Shown piece by piece: positions 9,970 through 57,005 of a stretch of DNA of 57,599 bases. Location: positions 1 to 57,599 of the IMG/VR virus record IMGVR_UViG_3300035136_000050, one strand, 5' to 3'. Under the pieces are notes generated by a model. That model made no database searches. It was not told where the DNA came from and was given only the letters and a program-made list of their open reading frames with translations. This stretch comes from a virus. How positions within the stretch are numbered: the stretch's first letter is position 1; every line of letters begins with the position of its first letter. The position numbers and the translations under genes were made by a program.

Positions 9970-9981
9970 CTAGGAGGAGAG

Positions 9982-10365
9982 ATGAAGGCGACGGATGTTT
10001 GCACGGAGTTGAAGGCGCTGCTGGGGGTGCGGCGGAACGAGGAGATCGCGCCGGCGGTGAGGGGTCTGTTGGATAAGCGAAAGCCGCGACAACCAACGGG
10101 GGTGTTGTTGGTGTTGGACGAGGGGACGTATTATCCAACGGTAGTGGGAATGAGGCAACCAACGTTGGGCCAGGTGGAGGCGCTCCGGGAGGCGTGTTTG
10201 CATTTTTCGGAGACGCAGTTGGGGAAGATCGGGAATGTGTTGCGGGAGAGGGAGATCGAGGCGCGGGTGCGCGCGGAGTTGAGACGAGAGGCGGGGGGCG
10301 AGGGGCGGGGGGCGAGGGGCGAGGGGCGAGGGGCGAGGGGCGAGGAACACGGGTCGGCGGAGTGA
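9982..10365 (+). CDS. Small hypothetical protein with repeat-derived tail
   Basis: A 127-residue protein starting at ATG 9982 behind AGGAGGAGAG and closing the tail operon. I do not recognise the family. The first 100 residues look like a genuine globular sequence (MKATDVCTELKALLGVRRNE, PTGVLLVLDEGTYYPTVVGM). The last 30 are encoded by a GGGGCGAG microsatellite and read as Gly/Arg/Glu repeats, so the C-terminus has been extended by repeat expansion. A strong terminator follows at 10404. Confidence 0.7.
   Translation: MKATDVCTELKALLGVRRNEEIAPAVRGLLDKRKPRQPTGVLLVLDEGTYYPTVVGMRQPTLGQVEALREACLHFSETQLGKIGNVLREREIEARVRAELRREAGGEGRGARGEGRGARGEEHGSAE
10290..10346 (+). repeat. GGGGCGAG microsatellite
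   Basis: Tandem 7- to 8-bp GGGGCGAG-type units at the 3' end of the preceding gene. Shorter copies of the same unit lie in coding sequence at about 38169-38195 (small terminase C-terminus) and 42340-42357 (MuF protein), so the expansion recurs in unrelated genes. Confidence 0.8.
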
Positions 10366-10403
10366 GTGGATTGGGGGATTAGGTATTGGATATTGGGGAT
10401 TTG

Positions 10404-10440
10404 GCCCTGGCGGCCGGGATGGCCGCCAGGGCTTTTTTGT
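10404..10440 (+). terminator. Rho-independent terminator of the tail operon
   Basis: GCCCTGGCGGCC-gggat-GGCCGCCAGGGC forms a perfect 12-bp stem with a 5-nt loop, followed by TTTTTTG. It ends rightward transcription of the tail genes just before the convergent leftward genes begin. Confidence 0.95.
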
Positions 10441-10450
10441 TGGGGTAGGG

Positions 10451-10471
10451 CAGGTAATGGTTTGTTATGTG
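10451..10471 (+). repeat. Dispersed 21-bp site 2 (CAGGTAA-N7-TTATGTG)
   Basis: Lies in the convergent junction. The stop codon of the leftward gene 10465-10833 is the TAA inside its right arm. Confidence 0.85.
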
Positions 10472-10833
10472 CGCTGGTATTTGATGCTCCAGCCGCAGGC
10501 TGGACACGCGGCCTGATTGGAGTATTTGTGGTCGCCAGCGGGCTGGTAGGCGGTGGCTCCACAGGTGGGACAGATGAGATCAATGATCTCATCCGTGTCG
10601 GCCAGCCACCAGGCTCCCCAGAGATGGCGTGGAATTCCGAGGATGGCCCAGGCCTTCTGGGCGTCCATTTTAAGGGCGGTACGCTGGATATCCTCAATGG
10701 GATAGAGGGTGTAGCGACCGATTTTGTATTCGGTCCATTTGTCGCGCTGAGCGATTTTACTGATTCGCTCGTTGGAAATTCCGAGGATGGCAGCGATTTC
10801 TTTGCGGGTGTAGTAGCCAGGGATTTGAGTCAT
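10465..10833 (-). CDS. HTH protein with C-terminal zinc ribbon
   Basis: A 122-residue DNA-binding protein. The start at 10833 is fixed by an ATGA overlap with the upstream HAD gene. Residues 5-50 (YYTRKEIAAILGISNERISK, then YTLYPIEDIQRTA) form a MerR/excisionase-like helix-turn-helix. Two CxxC pairs near the C-terminus (CPTCG, CPACGW) would form a zinc ribbon. It is the distal gene of a three-gene leftward operon driven from 11726-11753. A regulator or recombination accessory role is possible but not shown. The stop codon lies inside a dispersed 21-bp site. Confidence 0.7.
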   Translation of the reverse strand: MTQIPGYYTRKEIAAILGISNERISKIAQRDKWTEYKIGRYTLYPIEDIQRTALKMDAQKAWAILGIPRHLWGAWWLADTDEIIDLICPTCGATAYQPAGDHKYSNQAACPACGWSIKYQRT

Positions 10834-11366
10834 TGTTCGTTCCGCTTGAAGAACGCATTGGCGTAGATGAATGAGCAACTTGCGGCCTCGGCGGCGAGGC
10901 GATCATCGTCGCTATCGCCGACCATGAGGGTTTCGGAAGGGATAACGTTGGCATCAGCGATGGCCTGCAGGAGCATTCCGGGGGACGGCTTGCGCCAATC
11001 TGACTGCCAGGATGAATAGTGTTCTCCTGGAGTATGAATAATTATGTCGGGCTGGTTTTCGGGAATGGGCGACCAATGGCCTTTTTTGCTCTGGTAGGCG
11101 AAGCTGACGTAGAGCCGGGCGTCAAGGCTACGAGCCAGTCGGATCAGCCGGTACATGGTTTCATTCTTGGTGGGGTATTTGTCTGGATTGCCAAAATTTT
11201 CTTTGTGCATCCAGTAGCCCAGGCCGACGCCGCCCTGATTGGTGGCGAGGGAGATATGAGGCAGGTCGTTGCGCTGGAAGTATTCTGCGACGCCTGGTAG
11301 CAAGTCGTCGGTCCACTTTTGGGTGAGGGTGGTGTCGATATCGAAGATGATTAGTTTGGGATTCAT
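10830..11366 (-). CDS. HAD-superfamily phosphatase, PNKP/HisB-like
   Basis: A 178-residue haloacid dehalogenase-fold hydrolase. All four motifs are present: motif I FDIDTTL (DxDxT), motif II ATNQGGVG, motif III lysine in RKPSPGM, and motif IV VGDSDDDRLAAEAA. The ATNQGG signature and length place it near the polynucleotide 3'-phosphatase / histidinol-phosphatase subgroup. A DNA 3'-end cleaning role would therefore suit a phage, but a sugar or nucleotide phosphatase cannot be excluded. AAGGA precedes the ATG at 11366. Coupled by ATGA to the HTH gene. Confidence 0.8.
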   Translation of the reverse strand: MNPKLIIFDIDTTLTQKWTDDLLPGVAEYFQRNDLPHISLATNQGGVGLGYWMHKENFGNPDKYPTKNETMYRLIRLARSLDARLYVSFAYQSKKGHWSPIPENQPDIIIHTPGEHYSSWQSDWRKPSPGMLLQAIADANVIPSETLMVGDSDDDRLAAEAASCSFIYANAFFKRNEQ

Positions 11367-11411
11367 TGGAGTTCCTTTGCCAGGATTGAAGCTCCTGGCG
11401 GGCCTTTCAAA

Positions 11412-11672
11412 TTATATGGAGACGCTGGTAGGCCAGCCCGTGCTCTCTTTCCATTCCCATCGGATATCTCGGATGCTTTCGCCATCAATGAGCCATCCTC
11501 GAATTGTGTCTCCGCCTTTGTTCTCGCCCTCGATCAGGCGGTCGGTGTCGCGGAGAGCGATTATCTTGCAAGTCTCTGGCTCCATTCCCTCATTGTCGAG
11601 GGTTTCAAGCTCCGCATCAATCAAATTGACCCAGTTGGCGAATGTGGCTTGATTTGTGTTGACTTTGGACAT
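11412..11672 (-). CDS. Small acidic hypothetical protein
   Basis: An 86-residue protein starting MSKVNTNQATFANWVNLIDA at 11672 behind AAGGAG; a longer upstream ATG has no binding site. It is the promoter-proximal gene of the small leftward operon (11412, 10830, 10465). The C-terminal half (DTIRGWLIDGESIRDIRWEW) is beta-rich. Family not recognised. Confidence 0.65.
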   Translation of the reverse strand: MSKVNTNQATFANWVNLIDAELETLDNEGMEPETCKIIALRDTDRLIEGENKGGDTIRGWLIDGESIRDIRWEWKESTGWPTSVSI

Positions 11673-11725
11673 TGGATTTTTCTCCTTTTGTTTTTTAGAG
11701 CGGGCCGTCCCGCTCAACTATTTAC

Positions 11726-11753
11726 AGTATACCACAATATTGTGATATATCAA
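11726..11753 (-). promoter_or_regulatory. Sigma70-type promoter with palindromic operator
   Basis: Read leftward: -35 TTGATA (11753-11748), 16-bp spacer, -10 TATACT (11731-11726). The spacer contains the perfect 12-bp palindrome CACAATATTGTG (11733-11744), placed where a bound repressor would block RNA polymerase. It drives 11412-11672 and the two following genes. Confidence 0.75.
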
Positions 11754-11932
11754 TAGTGAAATTGGGAAAAAGGGGCGCTGGGGAGAATCTCTAATCTGGT
11801 GTTCTGTTTTGTTCTAGTTTGGGATGTTTGCGTGCAAACACGAGGGGAGGAACACGGAGCGGCGGAGTGAGCGGATTAGGGGATTTGGCGCGCCGGCGGA
11901 TGAAAGGGGATTTGGTGCGACGTCGGATGAAA

Positions 11933-13162
11933 TCAGGTTTGGGCTTGCTCCAGGGCGCGGGTGTAGTATTGGAGTTTTTGGCCAAGGTTGAGGCGGGCGG
12001 TGGGGATGGTGGTATGGCAGCCGAGGGTGGCCAGACGACGGGCGAGGTAGCGGGCGTAGGAGAGGGAGACGTGAAGCTCGATTAGATCGCCGCCCGTTAA
12101 AGTGTGTTTGGCCACCAGGTCGCGGGCGAGGGTGCAGGCGTAGTCCTGGCGCGCGCGGGCTTTGGCGTGATCGCCGGACCAAAGGGGGTTTGGCCCGGCG
12201 TTACCCTCCGGGCATAAACCGTCTTGGGTGAGGATGAGCACGTGGTTGTTGTTGAGGCGGGCGCAAGCGAGGGCCTTGGTGAATAGTTGTTGACCAGGTG
12301 ATGAATTTGGCCTTGGGGCCTGGACGATGGCGAAGCGCCGTTGCGGCCGTGGCCAATAGGGATTTTGGTTTTGGAAAACGAGGGCGGTCTCGTCCTCGAT
12401 GCGGGGATAGGATGGGTCGCGGGTGACGTGGATGTTGCGGAATTGGCTGGGGATGACGGCGCGTTGGTGAGTGGCTAGCAGGGTGAGGCCCTGAGCCTGG
12501 CAGAGGGCGCGGGTGTCGGCGGTGATGGGGACGCGGCGCTTGCGCCGGACACGGTCGCCAACGATTAAAACGAGAATACCGCCCGGGGTGAGAACGCGCT
12601 TACACTCACGGTAGGCGGCACGCATGACGCGCAGGTAGTGCTCGTAGACGTGGATGTTGCCGACCTGGGCCTTGGCGTCGCCGTAGCTGAGGCCGTGGCA
12701 AGGGTGGACGTGCTGGCCGTCCAGGGCGTGGCCACTTTTGCGGTTCCAGTTGGAGAACGTGTCGAAATAGGGGGGCGAGGTGAGGATGGCGGGGAAGGTG
12801 GCATTGGGCAACGGGAGGTGCAGCGCGTTCCATTGGCAGGTGAGGACGGGAGAGACGAAAAGCTGGCTTGAGCGGATATGGAGCGCGTTTTGGTTTTGAA
12901 GCGCGGCCCAGTGCGGCTCGACGTCGCCGGAGAGGACGGGTCGGGATTTGAGGGCGGCAAGCAGGATGGAGCCAGCGCCGCCAAAGGGGTCCAGGACGGG
13001 CTGGCCCTGGGCCGTGTAATGGTCGAGGAGCCAGGCGAGCCAGTAGAGGTTGACGCGGGCCTTGTGCTGGAAGGTGGTCGGGGTGAACAGGCGCTGGCGC
13101 AGGTGGTGGTCACGGCCGAAGGAATGTGGATTGGCGGAATAGGCGGATAGAGTAGTGAGCAT
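11933..13162 (-). CDS. DNA methyltransferase (TSPPY) with DUF6884-like C-terminus
   Basis: A 409-residue S-adenosylmethionine-dependent DNA methyltransferase. SAM motif I is VLDPFGGAGSILLAAL (about residues 56-71), and the catalytic motif is ILTSPPYFDTF (about 130), of the N4-cytosine or beta-class type. There is no partner restriction enzyme, so it looks like an orphan methylase that protects phage DNA. The last 120 residues (LTGGDLIELHVSLSYARYLA, TARLNLGQKLQYYTRALE) resemble the C-terminal half of the DUF6884 protein at 14949-15476, suggesting a fusion. The N-terminus reads through a repeat (SAYSANPHSFG). Confidence 0.85.
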   Translation of the reverse strand: MLTTLSAYSANPHSFGRDHHLRQRLFTPTTFQHKARVNLYWLAWLLDHYTAQGQPVLDPFGGAGSILLAALKSRPVLSGDVEPHWAALQNQNALHIRSSQLFVSPVLTCQWNALHLPLPNATFPAILTSPPYFDTFSNWNRKSGHALDGQHVHPCHGLSYGDAKAQVGNIHVYEHYLRVMRAAYRECKRVLTPGGILVLIVGDRVRRKRRVPITADTRALCQAQGLTLLATHQRAVIPSQFRNIHVTRDPSYPRIEDETALVFQNQNPYWPRPQRRFAIVQAPRPNSSPGQQLFTKALACARLNNNHVLILTQDGLCPEGNAGPNPLWSGDHAKARARQDYACTLARDLVAKHTLTGGDLIELHVSLSYARYLARRLATLGCHTTIPTARLNLGQKLQYYTRALEQAQT

Positions 13163-13241
13163 TAGTGTTTGTCTCTGATCTGGAGCAGGCGCAGGGCGAG
13201 GCCGCGATGGTTATCAGGCAGATCGCTATTAGTGTTAGCAT
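13110..13241 (-). CDS. Small membrane or lipoprotein-like peptide
   Basis: A 43-residue peptide, MLTLIAICLITIAASPCACS..., with one hydrophobic N-terminal segment and a lipobox-like Cys cluster. ATG 13241 has GAGGA 8 nt upstream. It overlaps the methyltransferase start by 53 nt, and its last third is encoded by an interspersed repeat, so it may be a remnant. The function is unknown. Confidence 0.4.
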   Translation of the reverse strand: MLTLIAICLITIAASPCACSRSETNTNAHYSIRLFRQSTFLRP

Positions 13242-13257
13242 GATTTTGTTCCTCGTG

Positions 13258-13324
13258 GGGGTGCAGGGGTGCAAAAGGGGCGCTGCACCCCGCTGCACCC
13301 TATGTGTCTGCACCCCTGCACCCC
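13258..13324. repeat. 16-bp inverted repeat with internal copies
   Basis: GGGGTGCAGGGGTGCA (13258-13273) and its exact complement (13309-13324) enclose 35 nt that contain two more CTGCACCC units. It lies directly 3' of the FtsK-like gene and 5' of the small ORF. It would form a strong hairpin in leftward mRNA but lacks a T-tract, so it is more likely an RNA stability or processing element, or a repeat insertion. Confidence 0.8.
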
Positions 13325-14922
13325 TAGTTGCGGCCCAGGAGTTGGTTAATGGCTTTGGCGCGCGAGCCGGATTTGCCGGTTGGTCCCCAGAGGTCTTTCA
13401 TGATGGCGGTGGTTGACGCGCCCTGGCGGCCGAGTTCGCGGACGCGCTGTTCTTCGTTGGGGGAGAGGCTGGCCGTGGGGCCGTCGTCGGTTGGGGGCGG
13501 CTCGACAGATGGCGCGGGCTGGCGCGGGCCGGATTGGCCGGCGAGGAGGGCGTCTATTTCGGCGCGGGTGATGACGGGGGCCTGGAGTTCGACGTCGTTG
13601 TTGTAGCCTCGAAGGCGGCAGATAGCGCGGCCAGCATCGAGGCCCTGGGCGCGGGTGTGACCCAGGAGGACACGGGCTTGATGCGGATCGGCGGCGTGGA
13701 ATTGGACGCGGGTGACGAGCTGGTTGCGGATCTCGCTGGCGGTGGAAGAGACCTTGAAATCCTGGCCGGCCAGGACGAGCCAGAGGCCGAAGGAACGACC
13801 GAGCAGCACCAGGTCCACGGCCTGGCTGGCGATTTGTTTGTCCCCCCGGAGCAGGATGGTGCCCTCGTCGAGCAGGGCCACGAGGGGGCGGAATTGGCCC
13901 GCGCCGTTGGCCCTGGCGTTATAGTCGGCGAGGCTCTTGGCCCCGCCGATGGATTCAAAGGCGGCTTTGCGGGCCTGGAGCTCTTCGTAGCAGGCGGCGA
14001 GGATGGCGCTGCCGTCGTCGCGGGCCGTGACGACGGGCCAGCGCAGGGCGGCGGCGTCCCGCCAGGCGACGAGTTCGCTCTTGAGATCCACGATGGCGAG
14101 GTCGCAGGCGTTGGATTTGACGAATTGGTAGAGTAATGATTCCAGGAAGGTTGTTTTGCCAAAGCCGGTGGAACCGGCGACGGCAAAGTGGACCAGGTCG
14201 TCCATGGCCATGGAGATGGGTTGTTGTTGGCCAGTGGCAGGGTCGCATGTGACGCCGAGAAAGACGCGGTCCAGGGATGCGCCGCCCTGGGCGTCGAGGT
14301 AGCGCGCGAGGGGGACGTAATTGGGCCAGTTCATGATGACGTCGCGGGTGGATTCGTCGGCGGCGGCCAGGGTAGGCGGGGCGTTGTTGGTGGTGTGAGT
14401 GGTGTAGGAGCGGGCTTGCTCGGCCTGGACACGCTGCGCGCCGGCGGTGACGAGGAATTGGGCTTGTTCCCAGCCGGGGGCGACGAGCACGTCTCCGTCG
14501 CTGAGTTGGGTGGTTGCGCCCACGGCACGGTTGGCGTCGAAGATGGTCCAACGGCCACCGGCCTTGGAGATGACGAGGGGGAACAGGCCACCGATGGGGG
14601 CGATGGTGGCAGCCCAGCGCCAGCCACGCAGGGTGAGGGTGGTGATGAGGCCGAGGCCGGCGGCGGTGATCAGGACCAGCGCCACGAGGCGGAGCAGGAT
14701 GTAGACGGCCAGGTCCACGGGTTCGCGGCGGGCGCGGTCGGCGCGGGCCTCGGCCCAGCGGGCCTGATTTTCCTCAAGGGTGGCTTGCTCGTGGGCGCGT
14801 TGCTCGGGGGTGAGGGCGGGGGGGTCGCAGCCTCGGAAGGCGACCCAGGATAGGGCGATGATGACGATGATGGCAAAGGGGGTTGGTGAGTTTAGAAATC
14901 TGGGGAGTGTTAGGTTGCGCAT
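13324..14922 (-). CDS. FtsK/SpoIIIE-like membrane-anchored DNA translocase
   Basis: A 532-residue ATPase. The N-terminus has hydrophobic segments at about residues 15-30 (FAIIVIIALSWVAF) and 73-97 (LLRLVALVLITAAGLGLITT). Walker A is GSTGFGKTTFLESLL at about residue 248 and Walker B is PLVALLDEG. The late motif LVLAGQDFKVSSTASEIRNQ is typical of FtsK-type motors. A C-terminal helix-turn-helix-like tail (GRQGASTTAIMKDLW) may bind DNA. The start has GGAAGGAGT. The domain order resembles single-protein plasmid transfer motors (TraB-like), which is unusual for a tailed phage. It is not the packaging ATPase, which lies at 38928-40691. Confidence 0.8.
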   Translation of the reverse strand: MRNLTLPRFLNSPTPFAIIVIIALSWVAFRGCDPPALTPEQRAHEQATLEENQARWAEARADRARREPVDLAVYILLRLVALVLITAAGLGLITTLTLRGWRWAATIAPIGGLFPLVISKAGGRWTIFDANRAVGATTQLSDGDVLVAPGWEQAQFLVTAGAQRVQAEQARSYTTHTTNNAPPTLAAADESTRDVIMNWPNYVPLARYLDAQGGASLDRVFLGVTCDPATGQQQPISMAMDDLVHFAVAGSTGFGKTTFLESLLYQFVKSNACDLAIVDLKSELVAWRDAAALRWPVVTARDDGSAILAACYEELQARKAAFESIGGAKSLADYNARANGAGQFRPLVALLDEGTILLRGDKQIASQAVDLVLLGRSFGLWLVLAGQDFKVSSTASEIRNQLVTRVQFHAADPHQARVLLGHTRAQGLDAGRAICRLRGYNNDVELQAPVITRAEIDALLAGQSGPRQPAPSVEPPPTDDGPTASLSPNEEQRVRELGRQGASTTAIMKDLWGPTGKSGSRAKAINQLLGRN

Positions 14923-14948
14923 GGTTGGACTCCTTCCTGTTGGCCCGG

Positions 14949-15476
14949 CTAAAGCCTGGACTCCAGGGTGGGCAGATAACTGTTTGTTATGTGAGCTGGA
15001 TGTTGGGTATTGGATATTAGGTATTCGATTTGTTGGTTGAGCCAGCGCAGTTGCTGGCCGATGCCCAGGCCCTGCATGGGGATTTCTATGGTGTAGCCCA
15101 GGGCTTGGAGCCAGCGGGCCAGGCAGGCGTGGTAGGGTTTGCCAGCCAGGATAGTGATTTGGTCCTGGAGAGTGATGTGGTGGATGAGGTCATGTAGGAC
15201 ATTGGCAGACCAGCGTCGCCGGTAGCTGCCGGACGCCTGGGCGAGGGTGAAATCGTAGGGCGCGATGATGGCGGCCGGGTCTACGAGATGGTGATGGGCG
15301 CTGAGGATGTACCAGCGGTCGGCGACTAGTTCGGCGTAGCGGCGGGCCTTTTTGAACCAGACGGATTGGTAGAGGTCGGCGGCGGGGGCGGGATGATCTA
15401 GTTTTTGGCCGACGCAGGCGACAAGGGCGATTTGCTCGGCGTATCGGACATTGATTGTGATTAGAGATTCGGTCAT
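14949..15476 (-). CDS. DUF6884-family protein
   Basis: A 175-residue protein with the hallmarks of DUF6884: VACVGQKLDHPAPAADLYQS near the N-terminus, ADRWYILSAHHHLVDP in the middle, and a C-terminal IPMQGLGIGQQLRWLNQQ. The family occurs in phages and mobile elements, and its biochemical role is not established to my knowledge. ATGA-coupled to the upstream gene, with GAGGTGC as binding site. The C-terminal 17 residues (AHITNSYLPTLESRL) translate through a dispersed 21-bp site, so the gene end has been reshaped by the site. Confidence 0.75.
   Translation of the reverse strand: MTESLITINVRYAEQIALVACVGQKLDHPAPAADLYQSVWFKKARRYAELVADRWYILSAHHHLVDPAAIIAPYDFTLAQASGSYRRRWSANVLHDLIHHITLQDQITILAGKPYHACLARWLQALGYTIEIPMQGLGIGQQLRWLNQQIEYLISNTQHPAHITNSYLPTLESRL
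14973..14993 (+). repeat. Dispersed 21-bp site 3 (CAGATAA-N7-TTATGTG)
   Basis: Lies inside the 3' end of the DUF6884 gene and 51 bp upstream of the FtsK-like gene start. Confidence 0.9.
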
Positions 15477-15817
15477 GGTAGCACCTCGGTGTTTTCTAGT
15501 AGGGGGTTGCGTTTTTCACGACGCCAGACGAGGCGGCCGTCCTGGCGGATGGCGTAGACGTAGTTGGAGACGTTGACCAGGCCGGCGCTGAAATAGCGTT
15601 GGACGTCGCGGACCTGGGCGCGGGTTAGTTCGCCGAAATATTTGATCTGGTCGGGCGGCAGGCCGAATTGGCGGGCGTAGCGTTGTTTGGCTGGAGAGCA
15701 CGGATTGGCAGAATGGAGGGATGATGCCCTGGGTGCAACCCGCTCGCAATCGTCTTCGACAGGCTCAGGCTGATTGCTCGCTATGCTCATTGTTCGTTGA
15801 GCTTTGATTTGGTTCAT
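15473..15817 (-). CDS. Small hypothetical protein with repeat-derived N-terminus
   Basis: A 114-residue protein. ATGA overlaps join it to both neighbours (15814 and 15476), with GAGGTGC upstream of the start. Residues about 17-45 (EPVEDDCERVAP, HSANPCS) are the translation of two interspersed repeats, whereas residues 46-114 (QRYARQFGLPPDQIKYFGEL, RYFSAGLVNVSNYVYAIRQD) look like a real globular domain. The family is not recognised. It shows repeat insertion into a translated gene without loss of frame. Confidence 0.65.
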   Translation of the reverse strand: MNQIKAQRTMSIASNQPEPVEDDCERVAPRASSLHSANPCSPAKQRYARQFGLPPDQIKYFGELTRAQVRDVQRYFSAGLVNVSNYVYAIRQDGRLVWRREKRNPLLENTEVLP

Positions 15818-16686
15818 GAGAGCACCTCGATGCCGTTGCCGTTACGGCGGATTTGGCCGGATTCTTCGAGCTGGCCGAGGGTTAGTGTGACCCAGGATTT
15901 GGAGCGGCCAATGGCGTGGGCGGCGTCGCGGTGGGATGCGCCCGGGTTTTGGTCAAAGTAGTCTAGCAGGTCGGCGGTGGCCTGGGCACGGTTGCGTCGC
16001 CTGGCCCGGTTAGCGTGGTCAAGGTGGGCCTGGTTGGCCGATGGGGCGGCCAGGACGTGGGCAGGTTGGCCGGTTGGGGCCTGGTTATTGCCCGGTTTGT
16101 GACCGGGCAGTTGGCCGGTTTGTGACCGGGCAGGGGTGGTTAATTGGCCGGTTCCTGGCCGGTTATTGTCCGGTTTGTGAGCGGACAATTGGGCGGCTTT
16201 TGACCGGGCAGGGGTGGGCAATTGGGCGGGCAGGTCGCCGGTTTCGCGGCGGGTTTGGTTGGAGCGAATGGCCAGGTTTGTGGCTCCGACGACGGCCAGT
16301 ATGGGGAAAATGGCCGGGGCGACGGTGGACAGGCCGGGCCGGACTTCGAGTACAACGGTGAGGCTGATGGTGACGACGACGTAGACAGCGCCGGTGGTTA
16401 TGGAGAGCCAGAGCAGGCCGGGGGGGGCGAGGGTGCGGCCACGCTTGAGGTTGCCGGCGGGGGTGAGGCTGGATTGGTTCCAGTCGTAGAGACGCAGGGC
16501 GGTGGCGACGGTGGAGATACCGAGGGTCTCGATGACGGCGGCGATGATCAGGGCGATGGCCAGGGGCACGTCCAGGTGGGCGCGGGCGGCGCGGGCGACG
16601 AAAAAGGCGCTAGGCCCAGGGGCGAGCCAGGGGGCCAGGCGGGCGACGAGGTCCAGGGCGGTTTGTTCGAGATTGGGTGTTTTCAT
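15814..16686 (-). CDS. Membrane protein with C-terminal winged helix
   Basis: A 290-residue protein starting MKTPNLEQTALDLVARLAPW at 16686 (ATGA overlap with the gene upstream; GGGAG binding site). Hydrophobic segments lie at about residues 28-55, 83-108 and 112-135. A low-complexity linker holds two copies of a 24-residue unit, TPARSxxxQLxxHKPxNN. The C-terminus (DAAHAIGRSKSWVTLTLGQL, then EESGQIRRNGNGIEV) is a winged helix. It may be a membrane-tethered DNA-binding partner of the FtsK-like motor in the same operon; that is inference. Confidence 0.7.
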   Translation of the reverse strand: MKTPNLEQTALDLVARLAPWLAPGPSAFFVARAARAHLDVPLAIALIIAAVIETLGISTVATALRLYDWNQSSLTPAGNLKRGRTLAPPGLLWLSITTGAVYVVVTISLTVVLEVRPGLSTVAPAIFPILAVVGATNLAIRSNQTRRETGDLPAQLPTPARSKAAQLSAHKPDNNRPGTGQLTTPARSQTGQLPGHKPGNNQAPTGQPAHVLAAPSANQAHLDHANRARRRNRAQATADLLDYFDQNPGASHRDAAHAIGRSKSWVTLTLGQLEESGQIRRNGNGIEVLS

Positions 16687-16919
16687 TGGATTAGTTCTCC
16701 CGGGGCGAGGTCCAGGCGGGGCAGGTAGGCGACGGGGACGTCTAGCTGGGCCTGGGCGGCGAGGGCGAGGGCGTGGAAGGCGGCGGCGATGGTTTCGAGG
16801 GCGTCGGCGTCTGGCCCGCCGGCCGTGGCTGCGGCGTCGCAGGCGCGGGCGAGCTGGCGACAGTCGGCGATGGTGAGGCTGAGGGTGACGAGGCCGAATT
16901 GTACCTGGTTGATCTTCAT
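16683..16919 (-). CDS. Small Ala-rich helical protein, leader-controlled
   Basis: A 78-residue protein, first gene of the operon driven from 17130-17158. Family not recognised; the middle (DALETIAAAFHALALAAQAQ) is a helical hairpin. A degraded paralogue lies on the minus strand at 38242-38463. Its ribosome binding site GGAGCTTCCAAA is exactly complementary to a loop in the leader RNA (16986-16997 on the plus strand), so translation is probably switched by RNA folding. Confidence 0.7.
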   Translation of the reverse strand: MKINQVQFGLVTLSLTIADCRQLARACDAAATAGGPDADALETIAAAFHALALAAQAQLDVPVAYLPRLDLAPGELIQ

Positions 16920-17123
16920 GATTTGGAAGCTCCTTTATGTGAGTTAGCAACACAAAGTCCCATAGCGACCGGTTGCAGCTTTCTCGGAGCTTCCAAACTC
17001 ACAAGAGGCAGCAGTTGCCGGTCACTATGGGACCTTGGGTGGGGTGCGCGATTGGGATATGGTAAAGCGACGCTGTTGGTTGCGACAAAAAAGCTGCGCT
17101 CTAGGTATGAGTTTGGAAGCTCG
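16920..17123 (-). promoter_or_regulatory. Structured 5' leader with competing RBS pairing
   Basis: About 200 nt between promoter and first codon. A long stem pairs 16957-16972 with 17018-17033 (15 of 16 bp). Its loop carries TTTGGAAGCTCC (in the leftward RNA), exactly complementary to the ribosome binding site GGAGCTTCCAAA (plus strand 16922-16933). The 5' end of the RNA (17108-17122) carries a 15-nt element, GAGCTTCCAAACTCA, that can pair perfectly with the same loop. The two pairings exclude each other, as in riboswitches and attenuators. Ligand or trans-factor unknown. Confidence 0.6.
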
Positions 17124-17129
17124 CTGATT

Positions 17130-17158
17130 ATTGTATCATGGATGGCGTTCATAGTCAA
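17130..17158 (-). promoter_or_regulatory. Sigma70 promoter for the 16919-11933 operon
   Basis: Read leftward: -35 TTGACT (17158-17153), 17-bp spacer, -10 TACAAT (17135-17130). It is the best consensus match in the leftward half and sits just before the structured leader. Confidence 0.8.
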
Positions 17159-17175
17159 TAGCTCGTTTGTTCGTG

Positions 17176-17205
17176 AGAACACGGATTGGCGGAATGGACG
17201 GATGG
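17176..17205. repeat. Interspersed repeat family 'acacggattggcggaatgg'
   Basis: Representative copy. Related copies lie near 10348, 11851, 13134, 15698, 17250, 20340, 25526, 28092, 31260, 43331, 47261, 51022 and 53138. Many lie at gene ends and are translated as SANPCS (minus) or REHGLAE (plus). The family looks host-derived; that is inference. Confidence 0.8.
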
Positions 17206-17222
17206 TGGGGCGAGATCGGATT

Positions 17223-17918
17223 TTATTGGTCATCGTCGCTGGTCTCCTGAACACGGAGCGGCGGGATGGACGGATGAGGCCCGGCGAGGGCGTAACGCTC
17301 GCAGCGCCAGGAACGGATGGCCCCGGCGAGTTCGAGCTGGGCGAGGAGGCGGGCGACATCGCGCAGGGGGAGTTTGGTCTTCTGGGCGATGGTTTGGTAG
17401 TGGACGCCGAGGCCGTCGCGGTCGAGGGTGTGGATGGCGGCGAGGATATAGGCGCGCGGGTCAGGCGATTGGATGGGTTGGGCTGGTTTTGCGGATTCGT
17501 CGAATAGGACGTATTCGAGGACGTCGTTGGTAGCCTGGGCCAGGTCCAGGAGGGCGTTGTAGCCGTCCCATTGGCTGAGGCAGTAGGCGGCGTTGCGGGA
17601 GTGGGCCTCGGTAAAGGCGGCGAGGCCGTGGGGGCCGTAGTGGTCGGGGTGGGACCGGGCGGCGGCGATGAATTTGGCGAGGGGGGCCTGGAGCAGGAGG
17701 GAGCGGCAGTGGGGGCAGCAGGGTAGGGGGCCGAGGGGGGCGTCGTCGGTGTCGGGATGGCGGGCGATGTCGCTGGGGAAGGTGGTCCACCAGCAGCAGG
17801 CGGCGGAGTAGATGGCCCACTGGCCGCCGCCGTAGAGGGGGATGTCGGGGGATTGGGATTGGATTTGGGATAGGGTTATTTTGGATATTGGGTATTGGGT
17901 ATTAGATATTTGAGACAT
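17223..17918 (-). CDS. Hypothetical protein with C-terminal winged helix
   Basis: A 231-residue protein; AGGAG precedes the ATG at 17918. The first 20 residues translate a tattggg repeat. A CxxC pair (PCCPHCRS) near residue 70 suggests a small metal site. The C-terminal third (LAAIHTLDRDGLGVHYQTIA, RDVARLLAQLELAGAIRSW) is a winged-helix DNA-binding domain. It sits between the replication genes and the leader-controlled operon and may be a regulator. The family is not recognised. Confidence 0.6.
   Translation of the reverse strand: MSQISNTQYPISKITLSQIQSQSPDIPLYGGGQWAIYSAACCWWTTFPSDIARHPDTDDAPLGPLPCCPHCRSLLLQAPLAKFIAAARSHPDHYGPHGLAAFTEAHSRNAAYCLSQWDGYNALLDLAQATNDVLEYVLFDESAKPAQPIQSPDPRAYILAAIHTLDRDGLGVHYQTIAQKTKLPLRDVARLLAQLELAGAIRSWRCERYALAGPHPSIPPLRVQETSDDDQ
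17876..17915. repeat. Interspersed 'tattgggtattggatatt' repeat family
   Basis: Representative copy of a degenerate hexanucleotide-like filler seen just before many start codons (for example 6241, 10381, 15003, 18455, 19360, 20106, 21706, 23320, 25065, 43155, 52587, 54172, 57255). When translated it gives NTQYPISNTQ segments at several N-termini. Confidence 0.8.
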
Positions 17919-17928
17919 TGGGTTGCTC

Positions 17929-18498
17929 CTATAGTGGGTCTATGCCGATTTGCAGGCAGTCATGGATCCAGCGGGCGAGGTCGTCGGGGGTTTGGGCGCG
18001 CTGGATGGCGGCGCGAAGTTGGGCGAGTTCGGCGGTGAAACCGGAGCCGTCCCAGCAGGGGGCGTTGATGTAGTGGACGAGGTAGGCTTGCAGGATGGCG
18101 AATTGGGTTGGAGTGGGGGGCGGGTTGGCTGGGTCCACGCGGTGGTCGAGGTAGGCGTTGACGGCGGCGGGGATTTGGCCGGTGAGTTCGTCACGCCAGT
18201 TGTAGGGTAGGCCCAGGGGGGGGCGGTAGAAACCGGGCAGATAGCCCTGGGCTGGGTTGGAGAGGGGGATCAGGACGTCGCCGGGGTTTTTGAGCAGGCC
18301 TGATTTTTGGAAGCAGGCTGGATGGAAGCGGGCCTCGATGTTGTTGGCGAATATTCTGATGGGGACGTCGGTGATGGGCTGGCCGCAGAGGCTGCAAGTG
18401 CAGCCGGGGTGGCCGGCGTCGGGGCTGGTGGTGTACCAGGTGATGGTTGGTTGGGTATTGGATATTGGAGATTGGGTATCGAGTAGTGTCGGGGACAT
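17929..18498 (-). CDS. Hypothetical protein with CxxC/HxxC metal site
   Basis: A 189-residue protein starting MSPTLLDTQSPISNTQ at 18498 behind GGAGC; the longer upstream reading is out-of-character Pro/Ser-rich antisense sequence. Residues 25-60 (CTCSLCGQPITD, then ARFHPACF) form a zinc-finger-like CxC-x2-C ... HxxC site. The C-terminal half is helical. The next gene upstream encodes a HerA-like ATPase. Function unknown. Confidence 0.6.
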   Translation of the reverse strand: MSPTLLDTQSPISNTQPTITWYTTSPDAGHPGCTCSLCGQPITDVPIRIFANNIEARFHPACFQKSGLLKNPGDVLIPLSNPAQGYLPGFYRPPLGLPYNWRDELTGQIPAAVNAYLDHRVDPANPPPTPTQFAILQAYLVHYINAPCWDGSGFTAELAQLRAAIQRAQTPDDLARWIHDCLQIGIDPL

Positions 18499-18508
18499 GA
18501 TTTTGCTC

Positions 18509-19396
18509 CTATTCGGTGGGCGTCCAGCCGAGGTCCTCGGTCTGGCGCGGGCGGATGTGGACGACCTCGGAGACGCCGGCGAGGTCGAGGATGAAATGGC
18601 CGGCGTCGAGGCGGGCGAGGTGGGCGAGGGGGATGTGGCGGGAGAGGTAGGGGCGGATGGCGTCGTAATCGTTGAGGATTTCGACACGGCCCAGAAGTTT
18701 GACGTTGACTTGGGCAAAGACGGATTTGGAGAGGTCGCCGGGGCGCTGGGTGGCGAGGACCCAGTTGATGCCGCGCTTGCGGCCCCGGCGGGCGAGGCGC
18801 TCTAGCCACTCGCGGGATTCAGCGGCCCCCCGTTGTTTGCGCTGGGGGGCGATCTCGGCGGCCTCGTCTACGAAGAGGAAGCAACGGCGTTTGACCTGGC
18901 CGGCGGTGGTGTAGAAGTCGAGGGCGAGGCGGCGGAAGATTTCGCGCTGGGCATCGAGGGTAAGCTCGCCGACGTCGAGGACGGCAGCGCCGCCCTCGTG
19001 GAGCACGAAGTTGACGATGCCAATATGTTCCCACCCGAGGTCGGGCACCTCGATGACCTCGACGCCGGGGAGGGCGGCGAGTCCGGCGAATTCGGATTCC
19101 TGATCGAAGACGAGGAAGGGGTAGCCGACGCGGTGGACCTCTTCGGCGATGACGGCGAGGGCGTAGGATTTGCCGGAGCCGCTGGAACCGATGAGGATGA
19201 GGCGGTAGCCCTGGGTGCGGAAACGCGCGCCGTCGAGGTCGAAGGTGACGGGACCGGTGACGGGGTGGTCGGCGATGTGCAGGACCGGGGGGATGCTGGC
19301 CCGGGGTAGGACTTCGGCGAATTTGACATGGCCGTCGTCGGTTTCGAGCAGGCCGAATTGGGTATTGGGTATTGGAGTTTGGGTATTGAGCGTCAT
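18509..19396 (-). CDS. HerA-like (DUF87) ATPase
   Basis: A 295-residue hexameric-type ATPase of the HerA/FtsK superfamily. Walker A is LILIGSSGSGKSYALAVIAE (about residues 66-85), followed by FDQESEFAGL. Walker B is CFLFVDEAAEIAP, and the sensor is WVLATQRPGDLSKSVFAQVN. HerA proteins translocate DNA, often with the NurA nuclease in end resection or with effectors in defence systems. No NurA lies next to it, although a PD-(D/E)XK-like protein is encoded at 25507-26055. ATGA-coupled to the Zn-finger gene upstream; AAGGAAC before the ATG. Confidence 0.8.
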   Translation of the reverse strand: MTLNTQTPIPNTQFGLLETDDGHVKFAEVLPRASIPPVLHIADHPVTGPVTFDLDGARFRTQGYRLILIGSSGSGKSYALAVIAEEVHRVGYPFLVFDQESEFAGLAALPGVEVIEVPDLGWEHIGIVNFVLHEGGAAVLDVGELTLDAQREIFRRLALDFYTTAGQVKRRCFLFVDEAAEIAPQRKQRGAAESREWLERLARRGRKRGINWVLATQRPGDLSKSVFAQVNVKLLGRVEILNDYDAIRPYLSRHIPLAHLARLDAGHFILDLAGVSEVVHIRPRQTEDLGWTPTE

Positions 19397-20094
19397 TGGT
19401 TCGAGTTCCTTTTGATTTGGGTGAGTGAGCGTGTGGACGTGGGGTGGTTTTTGTATTTACTACACGCAATGGCGCGCAGGGGGTTGGCCGGGCGCGAGTT
19501 TTGCCAGTCCTGGACCAGGGATTGTTTGAGGGAGCGAATGTAGAGGCCGCGTGGGGCGGCGTTGTGCTGGCGCAGGTATTGGTAGAGGACAGCTATGTAG
19601 AGATCGCGGATGGGCCTGGGCAGGATGGAGGCGGCGTTGAATTGGTGGTCGGTGTGGTACTCGCTGGTGTTGGTGTTGGATAGGGTCACGGGGAAGGCGA
19701 CGAGGTCCTCGGGCTGGTGCCAGATGTAGTGACGCCCGTGAACGTTGAAGACGAAGCAGATGAGGTAGTAGGTGCGATAGATGCCGGTGCCGTCGCATTT
19801 GTAGCAGTCGAGTTCGCCGGATCCCCAATAGTCGCCGGTGCCGTCGCAGGACCAGCATTCGAGGTGTTGGGCCTGGCGGCGGGCGGCGATGCAGTAGCCC
19901 TGTTCATAGAATGATTGAATGAGGGAGGTTTTGAGGGTGTAGATGGCGGCGCGGTGGGCGTAGTCGCAGTGGCGGGCGTGGCGATTGAGGTGCCAGAGGC
20001 AGCGGGCGACGAGGCGCTGGTCGTGGGCGTGGAGCCAGCGCCGGGCCTGGTGGAGGAGGTGTTGTTGGTGGAGGTAGAGTTTTAGGTATTTCAT
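19393..20094 (-). CDS. Protein with DnaJ-type zinc finger
   Basis: A 233-residue protein; AAGGAC precedes the ATG at 20094. Two CxxC pairs spaced as in DnaJ zinc fingers (CWSCDGTGDYWGSGE and CYKCDGTGIYRT) lie at about residues 80-106. The rest is His/Tyr/Arg-rich and helical, with no J domain, so this is not a co-chaperone by itself. It may be an RNA- or DNA-binding protein in the replication operon. The family is not recognised. Confidence 0.65.
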   Translation of the reverse strand: MKYLKLYLHQQHLLHQARRWLHAHDQRLVARCLWHLNRHARHCDYAHRAAIYTLKTSLIQSFYEQGYCIAARRQAQHLECWSCDGTGDYWGSGELDCYKCDGTGIYRTYYLICFVFNVHGRHYIWHQPEDLVAFPVTLSNTNTSEYHTDHQFNAASILPRPIRDLYIAVLYQYLRQHNAAPRGLYIRSLKQSLVQDWQNSRPANPLRAIACSKYKNHPTSTRSLTQIKRNSNQ

Positions 20095-20132
20095 CGGTTT
20101 GTCCTTTGGGTATTAGGTATTGGGTATTAGGG

Positions 20133-20153
20133 CAGATAAGACGTTATTATGTG
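20133..20153 (+). repeat. Dispersed 21-bp site 4 (CAGATAA-N7-TTATGTG)
   Basis: Supplies the TAA stop of the small gene 20147-20326 and lies 39 bp upstream of the next start (20094). Confidence 0.9.
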
Positions 20154-20326
20154 TCCTGGTTTTGAGTGTTGGGATAGGTGAGATGGATTGCTAGAAAGTC
20201 CAGGAACAATATGAGATAGGCTGGTTTTGTGTAGCCGGTCACGAATAGATAGACGGTTAGCAGACAAACCAGGGCGGTGATTAGTAGTTTTGTGTCGTCT
20301 TCGAGTAGCCATAGTAGTTTGTTCAT
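20147..20326 (-). CDS. Small two-segment membrane protein
   Basis: A 59-residue peptide, MNKLLWLLEDDTKLLITALV..., with two hydrophobic segments (LLITALVCLLTVYLFV and AYLILFLDFLAI) separated by TGYTKP. GGAGC lies just before the ATG at 20326. An overlapping frame of similar length on this strand is basic and not protein-like, so this frame is preferred. The stop TAA is inside the dispersed 21-bp site. The function is unknown; a small inner-membrane protein between helicase and Zn-finger genes. Confidence 0.6.
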   Translation of the reverse strand: MNKLLWLLEDDTKLLITALVCLLTVYLFVTGYTKPAYLILFLDFLAIHLTYPNTQNQDT

Positions 20327-20363
20327 GGTGCTCCTTAGAACGCGGAACGGCGGAATGGGCGGA

Positions 20364-21830
20364 TTAGAATGCTAACGGTTTGTGGTAGACCTCGGCGTCT
20401 ACGAATTGGGTTAGATGTTTGCGGAAGAAGAGTTGGACGACGCCGGTGGGGCCGTGGCGCTGCTTGGCGATGATGACGTCGGCGATGTTTTTTAGCTCGG
20501 TGTCTGGGTTGTAGAGTTCGTCGCGGTAGAGGAAAAGGACGACGTCGGCGTCTTGTTCCAGGGCACCGCTGTCACGTAGATCGCTCAGGATAGGGCGCTT
20601 GTCGTAGCGTTGCTCGACGGCGCGGGAGAGCTGGCTGGCGACGACAAGGGGCACGTGCAGCTCGCGGGCGAGTTGTTTTAGTTCGCGGCTGATTTCGGAG
20701 ACGGCCTGGACGCGGTTTTCGGTGTGACCGTCGCTGGTCATTAGCTGGAGATAGTCTACCATGATCAGGTCGAGGCCATATTCTGCGTGCATGCGGCGGG
20801 TTTTGGCGCGGAGCTGCAAGGGCGATATGCCAGGGGTGTCGTCAATGAAGATCAGGGTCTCTGACAAGCGCCCGGCAGCCTCGGTGAACTTGGGCCACTC
20901 GTCGTCGTGCAGGTTGGCGGTGCGCAGGCGCTGGCTATCAATGCCGGTTTCGGCGGAGACGAGGCGCTGGACGAGTTGTTCGTTGGACATTTCAAGGCTG
21001 AAAAAGGCGACGCGCTGCTGGTATTGGCGAGCGGCGGTGAGGGCCAGGTTGAGCAGGAAGCTGGTTTTGCCGACGCCGGGGCGGGCGGCGACGATGATCA
21101 CGTCTGATTTTTGGAGTCCGCCGAGGAGTTTGTCCAGGTCTATAAAGCCGGTGGGGATGCCGAGTGGCTCTCCCTGGTGGGCGTGCAGGTATTCTATGCG
21201 GTCGTAGTAGGCGGCCAGGAGTTTGTTTAGCGGGGTGAGGTCGTGCTCACGCTGGGTGTTTGAGACGGCGAATAGGGCGGCCTCGGCCTGGTCCAGGAGT
21301 TCCTCGACTGGGCGGTCCAGTTGCCAGGCGAGGGAGGCGATGTCGCTGGCGGCGGTGATCAGGCGGCGGCGCAGGGCGGCGCGCATGACGATGTGCGCGT
21401 AGGCGGGGGCGTGCAGGGCGGTGGGGACGGTGTTGACGAGGGTAGAGAGGTAGGCGGGGCCGCCGATTTTAGCGAGCTGGTCGCGGGCTTGGAGTTCGTC
21501 GCAGAGGGTGACGAGGTCGGGCTGCACGCGCTGGGAGTGCAGGTGTTGGATGGCGTCGTAAATCCAGCCGTGGCGGACGATGTAGAAATCGCTGGCGCTG
21601 AGGATGGGTTCGATTTCGTTGATGATGGTGGGGTCTATGAGGAGCGCGCCCAAGACGGACTCCTCGGCGTCCAGGTTGTGGGGGACGGATTTTTTGGGCT
21701 GGGTATTGGATATTGGATATTGGGTATTGTCGTCGTGCTCGGGTGGCGGTGATGTGTTGAGATCGAAGGGGGGAGCCTCGGGCACGGTTTGGGTTCCTTC
21801 GACAGGCCCAGGATGATAATTGTTGGTCAT
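20364..21830 (-). CDS. dnaB: Replicative DNA helicase DnaB
   Basis: A 488-residue hexameric 5'-3' replicative helicase. The N-terminal DnaB domain begins near residue 50 (HNLDAEESVLGALLIDPTII). The C-terminal RecA-type domain has Walker A AARPGVGKTSFLLN and Walker B LDLIMVDYLQLM. Arginine-finger-region motifs follow (DLRDSGALEQDADVVLFLYR). The first 45 residues are repeat-derived linker (NTQYPISNTQPKK). AAGGAC precedes the ATG, and the start overlaps the nucleotidyltransferase stop. With the DnaC-like and RepA-like genes it forms the replication core. Confidence 0.95.
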   Translation of the reverse strand: MTNNYHPGPVEGTQTVPEAPPFDLNTSPPPEHDDNTQYPISNTQPKKSVPHNLDAEESVLGALLIDPTIINEIEPILSASDFYIVRHGWIYDAIQHLHSQRVQPDLVTLCDELQARDQLAKIGGPAYLSTLVNTVPTALHAPAYAHIVMRAALRRRLITAASDIASLAWQLDRPVEELLDQAEAALFAVSNTQREHDLTPLNKLLAAYYDRIEYLHAHQGEPLGIPTGFIDLDKLLGGLQKSDVIIVAARPGVGKTSFLLNLALTAARQYQQRVAFFSLEMSNEQLVQRLVSAETGIDSQRLRTANLHDDEWPKFTEAAGRLSETLIFIDDTPGISPLQLRAKTRRMHAEYGLDLIMVDYLQLMTSDGHTENRVQAVSEISRELKQLARELHVPLVVASQLSRAVEQRYDKRPILSDLRDSGALEQDADVVLFLYRDELYNPDTELKNIADVIIAKQRHGPTGVVQLFFRKHLTQFVDAEVYHKPLAF

Positions 21831-22555
21831 TTCCAGAGTCCTTTTTCACGGTGTTTGGGGGCGATCCAGGGGACGCCTAGTTCGGTGAAAACGTCTTGTT
21901 CGTCGGGGGTGGTGAGGCGACCGCCGTGTCGCCAGAGGCGACGGTCGCGGCAGCGCATGTTGCCGGGGAGAGCGCCGCCCTGGGCCTGGGGTGTGAACAG
22001 CCAGCGGGCAAAGTCGGCGCTGCCGGTGCGCTGGGTGAAAATGACGCCCCAGGAGTCGAGGTTGGTGATGAACAGGTCGAGCTGGACGTCGTAGGGGGGA
22101 ACGATGAATTTTTTATAGCGGTCGCCTTGCTTGTCGCCGGGGACGAGACGGCCGGCGGCGACGAGACGGTCCAGGGCAAAGTCGAGGCGGGACTGCTGGC
22201 CGTAGACCTCGCTGAATAGATTGGTTAGCGGGTCATAGTGAGGGATGGCGACGAGTTCGATGTCGCCGATGTAGGTACACTGGCGGCGGAGGCTGCCGGC
22301 GATCTGGAGACGGGCGCAGGCAGGGGCCAGGGCACGAGTGAGTTCCTGGGCCTGGGCCAGGGCGTCGTCGTAGGAGAGTTTGAGTTTCATCGGTTCACCT
22401 CGCAGGGTTTTGTAATACTCGGGGCGGGTGATGTGTTCGAGTTTGTTGATGCCCAGGTTGAGGGCGTCGAACAGGCCCGAGGGGAAGACGCGCAGGATGC
22501 GATAGAGGGCGCGGCCCTGGGTGCTATGAATGTAGGAGTGGGATTGGATGGTCAT
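21827..22555 (-). CDS. DNA polymerase X-like nucleotidyltransferase
   Basis: A 242-residue protein with a Pol-beta-type palm. The signature is GSLRRQCTYIGDIELVAIP (GS motif with the metal-binding DxE pair), and a third acidic residue lies in VQLDLFIT. The C-terminal TGSADFARWLF and RHGGRLTTPDEQDVFTELGV resemble the end of the PolX fingers/thumb module. No HhH or PHP domains are present, so it is a minimal version. The start at 22555 gives ATGA coupling to the loader gene, but an internal ATG at 22390 (MKLKLSYDDALAQ) has a stronger GAGGTGA site. Likely roles are DNA end repair or gap filling. Confidence 0.75.
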   Translation of the reverse strand: MTIQSHSYIHSTQGRALYRILRVFPSGLFDALNLGINKLEHITRPEYYKTLRGEPMKLKLSYDDALAQAQELTRALAPACARLQIAGSLRRQCTYIGDIELVAIPHYDPLTNLFSEVYGQQSRLDFALDRLVAAGRLVPGDKQGDRYKKFIVPPYDVQLDLFITNLDSWGVIFTQRTGSADFARWLFTPQAQGGALPGNMRCRDRRLWRHGGRLTTPDEQDVFTELGVPWIAPKHREKGLWK

Positions 22556-23376
22556 TGTCCCCCCCGGGCCCCCCCAGAGGGGGGGGAGATTTGAGCGCCG
22601 TAGGGCGGGGCGAGGATGGCTAGATGGATGCAGTGATTTTTATCTATGATGCGCGTGAAAAGACGCGGGTCGTGTTTTTCTAGCTCGTCGAGGGTGAGGG
22701 CGGTGGTGATGACGGTGGGCAGGTGGGCGACGTAGCGATGGTCGAGGAGCTGGTACAGCTTTTCCTGCGCCCAGGGCGTGGCGCTGTGCGCGCCCAGGTC
22801 GTCGAGGATGAGGAGAGGGGCGCAGCGGACGGCGTCAAAGCGGGCGTCGTAGGTGGTGTTGCTGGCGGGGTTGAAGGCGGCGCGCAGGTGGTCGAGCAGG
22901 TCGGCGACGGTGTAGAGCAGGGCGGGCTGCAGCTCGACGGCGACGCGGTGGTTGGCGATGGCGGCGGCGAGGTGGGTCTTGCCGCTGCCGTGGGGGCCGA
23001 ATAATAGGAGCCAGTCGAGCGGGTCGCGGGCGTAGGCGCGAGCACGGTCGAGGGCGCGGGATAGGCGGCGGCGCTCGTCGGGGGGGAGATCGGGACGAGC
23101 GGGCTGGAAGACGTCGAAGGTTTGGTCGGCGTGCAGGGGGAGAGTGCCAAAGGCGCTGAGGCGATGGGCGCGGCGCTGGGCCAGGGTCGCGGCCTGGCAG
23201 GTGCAGGGGATGAGTTTGCCAAAGTTTGGGTCGGTGGTGGGGAGGTCGGGGCGGAGGTAGCCCAGGCCGCCACAGGTGGGGCAAGTGGATATTGGGTCCC
23301 CTCGACTAGCTCGGGGTGATAATTGGGTATTAGGTATTGGGCGTTGAGCTAATTGCACATCTGTTTGTAGGTTCAT
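22552..23376 (-). CDS. DnaC-like helicase loader ATPase
   Basis: A 274-residue AAA+ protein. The N-terminus has a CxxC zinc knuckle (CPTCGGLGYLRPDL, then CTCQ), common in DnaC/DnaI-type loaders. Walker A is LLFGPHGSGKTHLAAAIANH and Walker B is APLLILDDLGAHS. It would deliver the adjacent DnaB helicase to the origin. The last 11 residues (SPPSGGARGGQ) come from a C/G-rich repeat shared with two other genes. GGAGAA precedes the ATG at 23376. Confidence 0.9.
   Translation of the reverse strand: MNLQTDVQLAQRPIPNTQLSPRASRGDPISTCPTCGGLGYLRPDLPTTDPNFGKLIPCTCQAATLAQRRAHRLSAFGTLPLHADQTFDVFQPARPDLPPDERRRLSRALDRARAYARDPLDWLLLFGPHGSGKTHLAAAIANHRVAVELQPALLYTVADLLDHLRAAFNPASNTTYDARFDAVRCAPLLILDDLGAHSATPWAQEKLYQLLDHRYVAHLPTVITTALTLDELEKHDPRLFTRIIDKNHCIHLAILAPPYGAQISPPSGGARGGQ
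22553..22590. repeat. C-run/G-run repeat (tccccccctggggggggga)
   Basis: Three closely related copies (22556-22590, 26053-26090, 28353-28390) each sit at the junction between two leftward genes. They encode the C-terminal SPPSGGxxGGx of the upstream gene while overlapping the next start codon. Confidence 0.75.
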
Positions 23377-23401
23377 TGAATGTTCTCCATTTCGGCTAAC
23401 A

Positions 23402-23474
23402 TGTTACTTGTTACTTGTTTTTTTGGGTTTTCTCGTTTTGGGGCCAAAGTGAAAAAAACAAGTAACAAGTAACA
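23402..23474. terminator. 23-bp inverted repeat, probable leftward terminator or attenuator
   Basis: TGTTACTTGTTACTTGTTTTTTT and its exact complement enclose 27 nt between the RepA-like and loader genes. Each arm contains a duplicated GTTACTTG unit and a run of seven T or A. In leftward RNA the stem is preceded and followed by U-rich sequence, so it could reduce transcription between the two genes. Confidence 0.6.
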
Positions 23475-23489
23475 AGTTCGATATCTTTG

Positions 23490-24755: not shown

Positions 24756-24774
24756 GATTTCTCCTGTGGCTGCG

Positions 24775-24795
24775 CATGTAATAAAGCGTTATGTG
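24775..24795 (+). repeat. Dispersed 21-bp site 5 (CATGTAA-N7-TTATGTG)
   Basis: Between the RepA-like gene start and the ASCH gene; supplies the ASCH gene's TAA stop. Confidence 0.85.
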
Positions 24796-56992: not shown

Positions 56993-57005
56993 TAGGAGTG
57001 TAGCG

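What the first reader, a model, noticed from the sequence alone, without database searches (positions are those of the whole stretch)
16920..17158. Leader RNA with mutually exclusive pairing that can hide a ribosome binding site
From a near-consensus promoter, the leftward transcript starts with a 15-nt element (17122-17108). It is perfectly complementary to a loop sequence (17001-16987). The same loop is perfectly complementary over 12 nt to the ribosome binding site of gene 16683-16919 (16933-16922). The loop is presented by a long stem (16957-16972 with 17018-17033, one mismatch). This three-part layout (anti-anti-RBS, anti-RBS, RBS) is that of a riboswitch or attenuator, controlling an operon with a FtsK-like motor and a methyltransferase.
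Basis: partly seen in the sequence, partly recalled or inferred. Interest (0 to 1): 0.68.

Follow-up and report, generated by a model that had tools for sequence, protein, structure and literature searches.

The report
Phage RNA leader that gates translation
A virus of an uncultured bacterium starts one of its messages with an RNA segment that can pair in two mutually exclusive ways, one of which covers the start signal for making a small protein, and three other virus contigs carry the same layout with different letters, so evolution is keeping the pairing and it is probably a real on/off switch.

Summary
In the leftward transcript of this phage, a 15-nt 5'-end element (A, 17122-17108) and the 12-nt RBS element (C, 16933-16922) are both perfectly complementary to one segment (B, 17001-16986) at the tip of a 20-bp rod. 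I found three more leaders with the same anatomy but different sequence in other phage contigs (L082, L243, L346): promoter, A at the TSS, GCUUUUUUGU, 19-20-bp rod, B as a 5-bp/4-nt tip hairpin, C over the Shine-Dalgarno 12-14 nt before the start codon. A:B and B:C keep 43 of 44 core pairs each, with double-sided changes at 8 and 7 of 11 positions. No Rfam family matches. The controlled genes differ but are small and acidic; the window's 78-aa protein is homologous to L346's. This supports a cis-acting translational switch resembling the timP toxin mRNA (A:B pseudoknot = RBS open, B:C = RBS closed). Which state is the default, and the trigger, are unknown. It is not specifically an FtsK/methyltransferase regulator: elsewhere the leader sits on moron-like cassettes. 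A new RNA family built on a known principle.

The parts
17130..17158 (-). sigma-70-type promoter, TTGACT-17-TACAAT, TSS inferred at about 17123
   Evidence: 10 of 12 matches, TG before -10; the same strong promoter stands at the same place in L082, L243 and L346
17108..17122 (-). element A (anti-anti-RBS) at the 5' end of the transcript, GAGCUUCCAAACUCA
   Evidence: 15/15 complementary to B; starts 1-3 nt from the start of each leader as taken (at the inferred TSS) in all four leaders
17082..17097 (-). conserved element GCAGCUUUUUUGUCGC; its core GCUUUUUUGU is in all four leaders, in the loop of a small hairpin in L082, L243 and L346
17018..17037 (-). 5' arm of the 20-bp rod
16986..17001 (-). 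element B (anti-RBS), containing the tip hairpin GAGUU-UGGA-AGCUC (17000-16987)
   Evidence: same 5-bp + 4-nt tip in all four leaders
16953..16972 (-). 3' arm of the 20-bp rod
16922..16933 (-). element C, the RBS (GGAGCUUCCAAA), 12/12 complementary to B
   Evidence: starts 14 nt before the AUG
16683..16919 (-). first controlled gene, 78 aa, acidic and without a predicted membrane segment
   Evidence: homologous to the L346 leader gene (E 7e-11)
15814..16686 (-). second gene, 290 aa, hydrophobic stretches plus C-terminal winged helix (phrog_1687); its start overlaps the stop of the 78-aa gene (ATGA)
13324..14922 (-). FtsK/SpoIIIE-like motor at the end of the close-packed gene chain (via 15473-15817 and 14949-15476)
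   Evidence: PF01580, 4.7e-8

Best explanation
A cis-acting translational switch in the 5' leader of a small phage gene. One segment (B), presented as a hairpin at the tip of a 19-20-bp rod, can pair either with element A at the very 5' end (a pseudoknot, perhaps started by loop-loop kissing of the A and B hairpins) or with element C, which contains the Shine-Dalgarno and reaches almost to the start codon. A:B leaves C free (translation on); B:C covers it (translation off). A:B is at least as stable as B:C in all four leaders and A is made first, so nascent transcripts probably start on and are shut when A is masked, removed or out-competed. Shown here: the pairings, the fixed geometry, their covariation and the position over the Shine-Dalgarno. 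Inferred: that translation changes, the direction of the default state, and the trigger (5' trimming, RNase III cutting of the rod, a trans RNA or a protein at GCUUUUUUGU).
For: Four leaders share the same order and spacing: A-to-B 121/114/114/100 nt, B-to-C 68/59/54/66, C-to-AUG 14/13/12/13. A:B pairs 43 of 44 core cells with 8 of 11 positions changed on both sides; B:C 43 of 44 with 7 of 11; swapping partners between leaders breaks pairs. The observed triple of 11/11/11/9 nt exceeds every one of 2000 shuffles per leader. Each has an uninterrupted rod of 20/19/20/19 bp including G.U pairs, and an identical 5-bp + 4-nt tip on B. Duplex energies A:B -25.5/-24.0/-19.5/-23.8 and B:C -19.4/-21.0/-19.5/-22.4 kcal/mol. 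Folds are stable against shuffles: z -4.26, -3.02, -2.31, -2.44. The leader is rare and sits at a strong promoter and a start codon each time.
Against: No expression data. A:B and B:C together with the rod are pseudoknots, which the folding programs used here cannot score, so relative stability in full context is unknown. Plain MFE folds leave B in its own tip hairpin and pair neither A nor C with it. Only four members are known, two of them chosen by a promoter + GCTTTTTTG pattern, so the promoter and T6 conservation is partly ascertained; the A/B/C triple was not part of any search pattern that found a relative.
Confidence: 0.77

Rival explanations
1. DNA operators: A, B and C are three binding sites of a phage repressor on the DNA, and they change together between phages because the repressor's specificity changes.
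For: A lies at about +1, a usual operator position. A and B are imperfect palindromes (6-12 of 14 positions). Homologues of the 78-aa gene in an Anaerolineae genome have palindromes upstream of the start, as operators would look.
Against: C is not palindromic in any of the four (4, 4, 6, 4 of 14 positions). B is always inverted and always at the tip of a long rod whose G.U pairs only make sense in RNA. C is fixed over the Shine-Dalgarno 12-14 nt before the AUG. A:B and B:C extend in different directions from the shared core.
Confidence: 0.1
2. A ligand- or protein-sensing riboswitch with the rod and GCUUUUUUGU as the sensor.
For: GCUUUUUUGU is conserved in all four while the rest drifts; such a loop could bind a protein.
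Against: No conserved aptamer-like core; rod sequences are mostly unrelated (4-6 of 19-20 identical in five of six comparisons, 13 of 19 in the sixth); no Rfam match.
Confidence: 0.12
3. Type I toxin-antitoxin-like mRNA: the small protein is a toxin, the leader keeps its mRNA inert, and an antisense RNA is the antitoxin.
For: Mutually exclusive RBS sequestration and 5'-end pseudoknots occur in such mRNAs (timP, PMC11228461; aapA3, PMC6733600).
Against: The products are acidic (net charge -4 to -7) without membrane segments. No antisense promoter is conserved in place, and antisense scores are low (best 6.3-9.9 against 12.7-16.5 for the sense promoters).
Confidence: 0.08
4. Chance repeats without function.
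For: Short repeats are common in GC-rich DNA.
Against: Shuffle test 0 of 2000 in each leader, and four cases with the same geometry.
Confidence: 0.02

Closest known systems
timP mRNA of the timPR type I toxin-antitoxin locus (Enterobacteria; PMC11228461)
   Same: Long 5' UTR whose RBS is sequestered in one conformation, while a pseudoknot between the 5'-end stem-loop and a later stem-loop gives the translatable one; the pseudoknot covaries between species.
   Different: In timP the RBS is closed inside its own stem-loop (SL4) and the pseudoknot has 7 bp; here one segment pairs directly with either the 5' element (12-15 bp) or the RBS (11-13 bp). No antisense RNA or membrane toxin is evident here, and host group and sequence are unrelated.
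aapA3 toxin mRNA of Helicobacter pylori (PMC6733600)
   Same: Successive anti-Shine-Dalgarno pairings decide whether a small ORF is translated.
   Different: aapA3 closure finally needs a 5'-3' long-distance interaction and is opened by 3' trimming; here all partners lie in the leader.
lambda cIII mRNA (from general knowledge, not tested here)
   Same: Phage message with two exclusive RNA structures that open or close the ribosome site, with RNase III involved.
   Different: Different structure, gene and host; no 5'-end third element.

Membership tests
Known Rfam RNA families (riboswitches, leaders) | Score above the curated gathering threshold of a family | tested here: not met
   No match in the window or in L346, L243, L082; with E up to 5 only two hits far below their gathering scores
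Translational switch by mutually exclusive RBS pairing | One RNA segment complementary both to the RBS and to a second element | tested here: met
   four leaders with covariation
Translational switch by mutually exclusive RBS pairing | Pairing state changes translation | not testable with these tools
   Needs reporters or in vitro translation
Type I toxin-antitoxin mRNA (timP-like) | Antisense antitoxin RNA encoded at the locus | tested here: inconclusive
   No antisense promoter conserved in place in the four leaders; absence of a promoter motif is not proof
Type I toxin-antitoxin mRNA (timP-like) | Small hydrophobic membrane toxin | tested here: not met
   maximum 19-residue hydropathy 0.76-1.23, net charge -4 to -7
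Transcription attenuator | Intrinsic terminator in the leader | tested here: not met
   no terminator-like site on the minus strand between 15700 and 17300
Metabolite riboswitch | Conserved ligand-binding core | tested here: inconclusive
   Only GCUUUUUUGU is clearly conserved among four diverged leaders

The most novel reading that the evidence does not exclude
A new family of mobile phage leader RNAs, found in unrelated phages of Anaerolineae-like bacteria, that gates small acidic moron proteins (possibly anti-defence proteins) through a kissing contest between a 5'-end hairpin and the RBS for one rod-tip hairpin, with the sequence of all three partners freely interchangeable.
Probability: 0.35. 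Interest if true: 0.75.

Novelty: new variant of a known kind. Interest (0 to 1): 0.62.

Why it matters
RNA switches of this kind are known mainly from model bacteria and toxin mRNAs. Here is an apparently undescribed family in phages of a poorly known phylum, whose three partner sequences change together while the geometry stays fixed, which makes the mechanism directly testable by swapping letters. It also marks a set of small, unannotated phage genes that seem to need tight translational control, and it is a natural design for a sequence-programmable switch.

Tried and rejected
Relatives of the 78-aa, FtsK-like and HerA-like proteins in IMG/VR: none. Megablast of the surroundings in phage and plasmid records: none; distant search with the leaders: only a 22-bp chance match or nothing. 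Exact pattern of the window's own B and C words in IMG/VR: none, so the words themselves are not conserved. GCTTTTTTGTYGC...CGTCGC: only L082 (again as L127) is real among 41; the CGTCGC part is not general. A repeat in L093 that looked like a triple is a coding repeat of an FtsK C-terminus. Prophages with related terminases or portals (L230-L239, L377-L381) lack the triple. Genome pattern hits L226-L229 and L358-L367 are not leaders. Fold model of the 78-aa protein: mean pLDDT 65.7, too weak for a fold search. The L082 and L243 leader genes match no family convincingly. No metagenome scan was allowed.

Full report
Observation. The window is an IMG/VR virus record of 57,599 bases carrying tail, terminase and portal genes, an integrase and a leftward block with DnaB, HerA-like, FtsK-like and methyltransferase genes. 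Its DnaB is closest to Anaerolineae/Chloroflexota proteins (55% over 438 residues, 63% over 327), and related terminases occur in Anaerolineae genomes, so the host is probably an Anaerolineae-like bacterium (inference). Shuffles of the leader never give such a triple (0 of 2000).

Relatives. The window's own words are not found elsewhere, but a scan that ignores the letters and asks only for w ... complement(w) ... w found the same layout in L082, a contig of the same phage group (terminase 73%, portal 71% identical). There it lies upstream of the terminase, a different genome position, in front of an unrelated 94-aa gene. From the promoter and GCTTTTTTG shared by these two I scanned IMG/VR and then tested the hits for the triple, which was not in the pattern: two of the 118 stretches held have it, L243 and L346. 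In the pieces held, L243 and L346 share no protein with the window at E 1e-4 in an all-against-all comparison, apart from the small leader gene of L346 seen in the direct comparison, so the leader occurs in phages that are not close relatives. L243 lies between portal/head genes and a scaffold-like gene (the last by eye); L346 lies among tail genes and is followed by an HNH-type endonuclease-like ORF (by eye).

Anatomy. In all four leaders A begins 1-3 nt from the inferred transcript start, B follows 100-121 nt later, C 54-68 nt after B, and the AUG 12-14 nt after the start of C. GCUUUUUUGU is conserved between A and the rod, in the loop of a hairpin in three of the four. The rod has 19-20 uninterrupted pairs with G.U pairs, and its tip is always a 5-bp, 4-nt-loop hairpin made of B. 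A:B and B:C keep 43 of 44 core pairs each, with 8 and 7 of 11 positions changed on both sides, while crossing A of one leader with B of another leaves 4-9 of 11 pairs. A and B are near-palindromes, C is not.

Mechanism. The simplest reading is that B is an anti-RBS that can be captured either by A or by the RBS. A:B is at least as stable as B:C in isolation, and A is transcribed first, so I favour an initially open RBS that closes when A is lost or occupied; the opposite default (B:C until a factor frees it) is not excluded. These directions are inference. The published timP mRNA works by the same logic: a 5'-end pseudoknot opens an otherwise sequestered RBS, with covariation and compensatory mutants as proof (PMC11228461). 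In aapA3, successive anti-SD hairpins close the RBS (PMC6733600). A DNA-operator reading is the most serious rival and is disfavoured by the non-palindromic C, the rod with G.U pairs and the fixed placement over the Shine-Dalgarno. A toxin-antitoxin reading is disfavoured by the acidic, non-membrane products and the lack of a conserved antisense promoter.

What is controlled. The 78-aa product is homologous to the L346 product (33% identity, E 7e-11) and, through a profile of the two, to three proteins of one Anaerolineae genome. Those three have no leader of this kind; at least two show palindromes in front of the start. One is followed by XisH and XisI genes. None of the four leader genes has a convincing Pfam or PHROG match. 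In the window the 78-aa gene overlaps a 290-aa hydrophobic/winged-helix protein and, by further overlaps, leads into a DUF6884 gene and, 26 nt on, the FtsK-like gene; the methyltransferase is 161 nt further and its co-transcription is not shown. Since the other three leaders are not attached to such an operon, the leader is best seen as a mobile control unit for small phage genes, not as an FtsK regulator.

Verdict. Novelty: a new RNA family (no Rfam match) using a known principle in a new arrangement. Literature searches returned no description of it, but they cover open-licence papers only.

Noticed in passing
window 16916-16963, minus strand: A frame starting at an ATG in the rod's 3' arm (MGLCVANSHKGASKS) runs through the RBS and stops on a TGA overlapping the gene's ATG. 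L082 and L346 have the same ATGA overlap, L243 does not; possible translational coupling to an upstream ORF.
   Followed up: partly
L368, L370, L371, L373 (Anaerolineae genome G174): Three dispersed homologues of the 78-aa protein (with a ...FHACxIASYSQWH-like motif) in one chromosome, at least two with palindromes in front, one followed by XisH and XisI (PF08814, PF08869); an uncharacterised small-protein family.
   Followed up: partly
window 13324-16919, minus strand: The gene chain small protein - hydrophobic/winged-helix protein - DUF6884 - FtsK-like motor in a phage resembles transfer modules of actinobacterial integrative elements (from general knowledge).
   Followed up: no
window 9970-25107, several ORF ends: Recurrent SNTQYPISNTQ-like tails at ORF termini from a dispersed DNA repeat, and other ORF tails that look like a second short repeat.
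   Followed up: no
window 56962-57226: A palindromic repeat GACCCTTGAGGTCT/AGACCTCAAGGGTC occurs several times near the right end.
   Followed up: no
window 17177-17204 and 17249-17276: Two 28-nt copies, 89% identical, GAACACGGATTGGCGGAATGGACGGATG, just upstream of the promoter.
   Followed up: no
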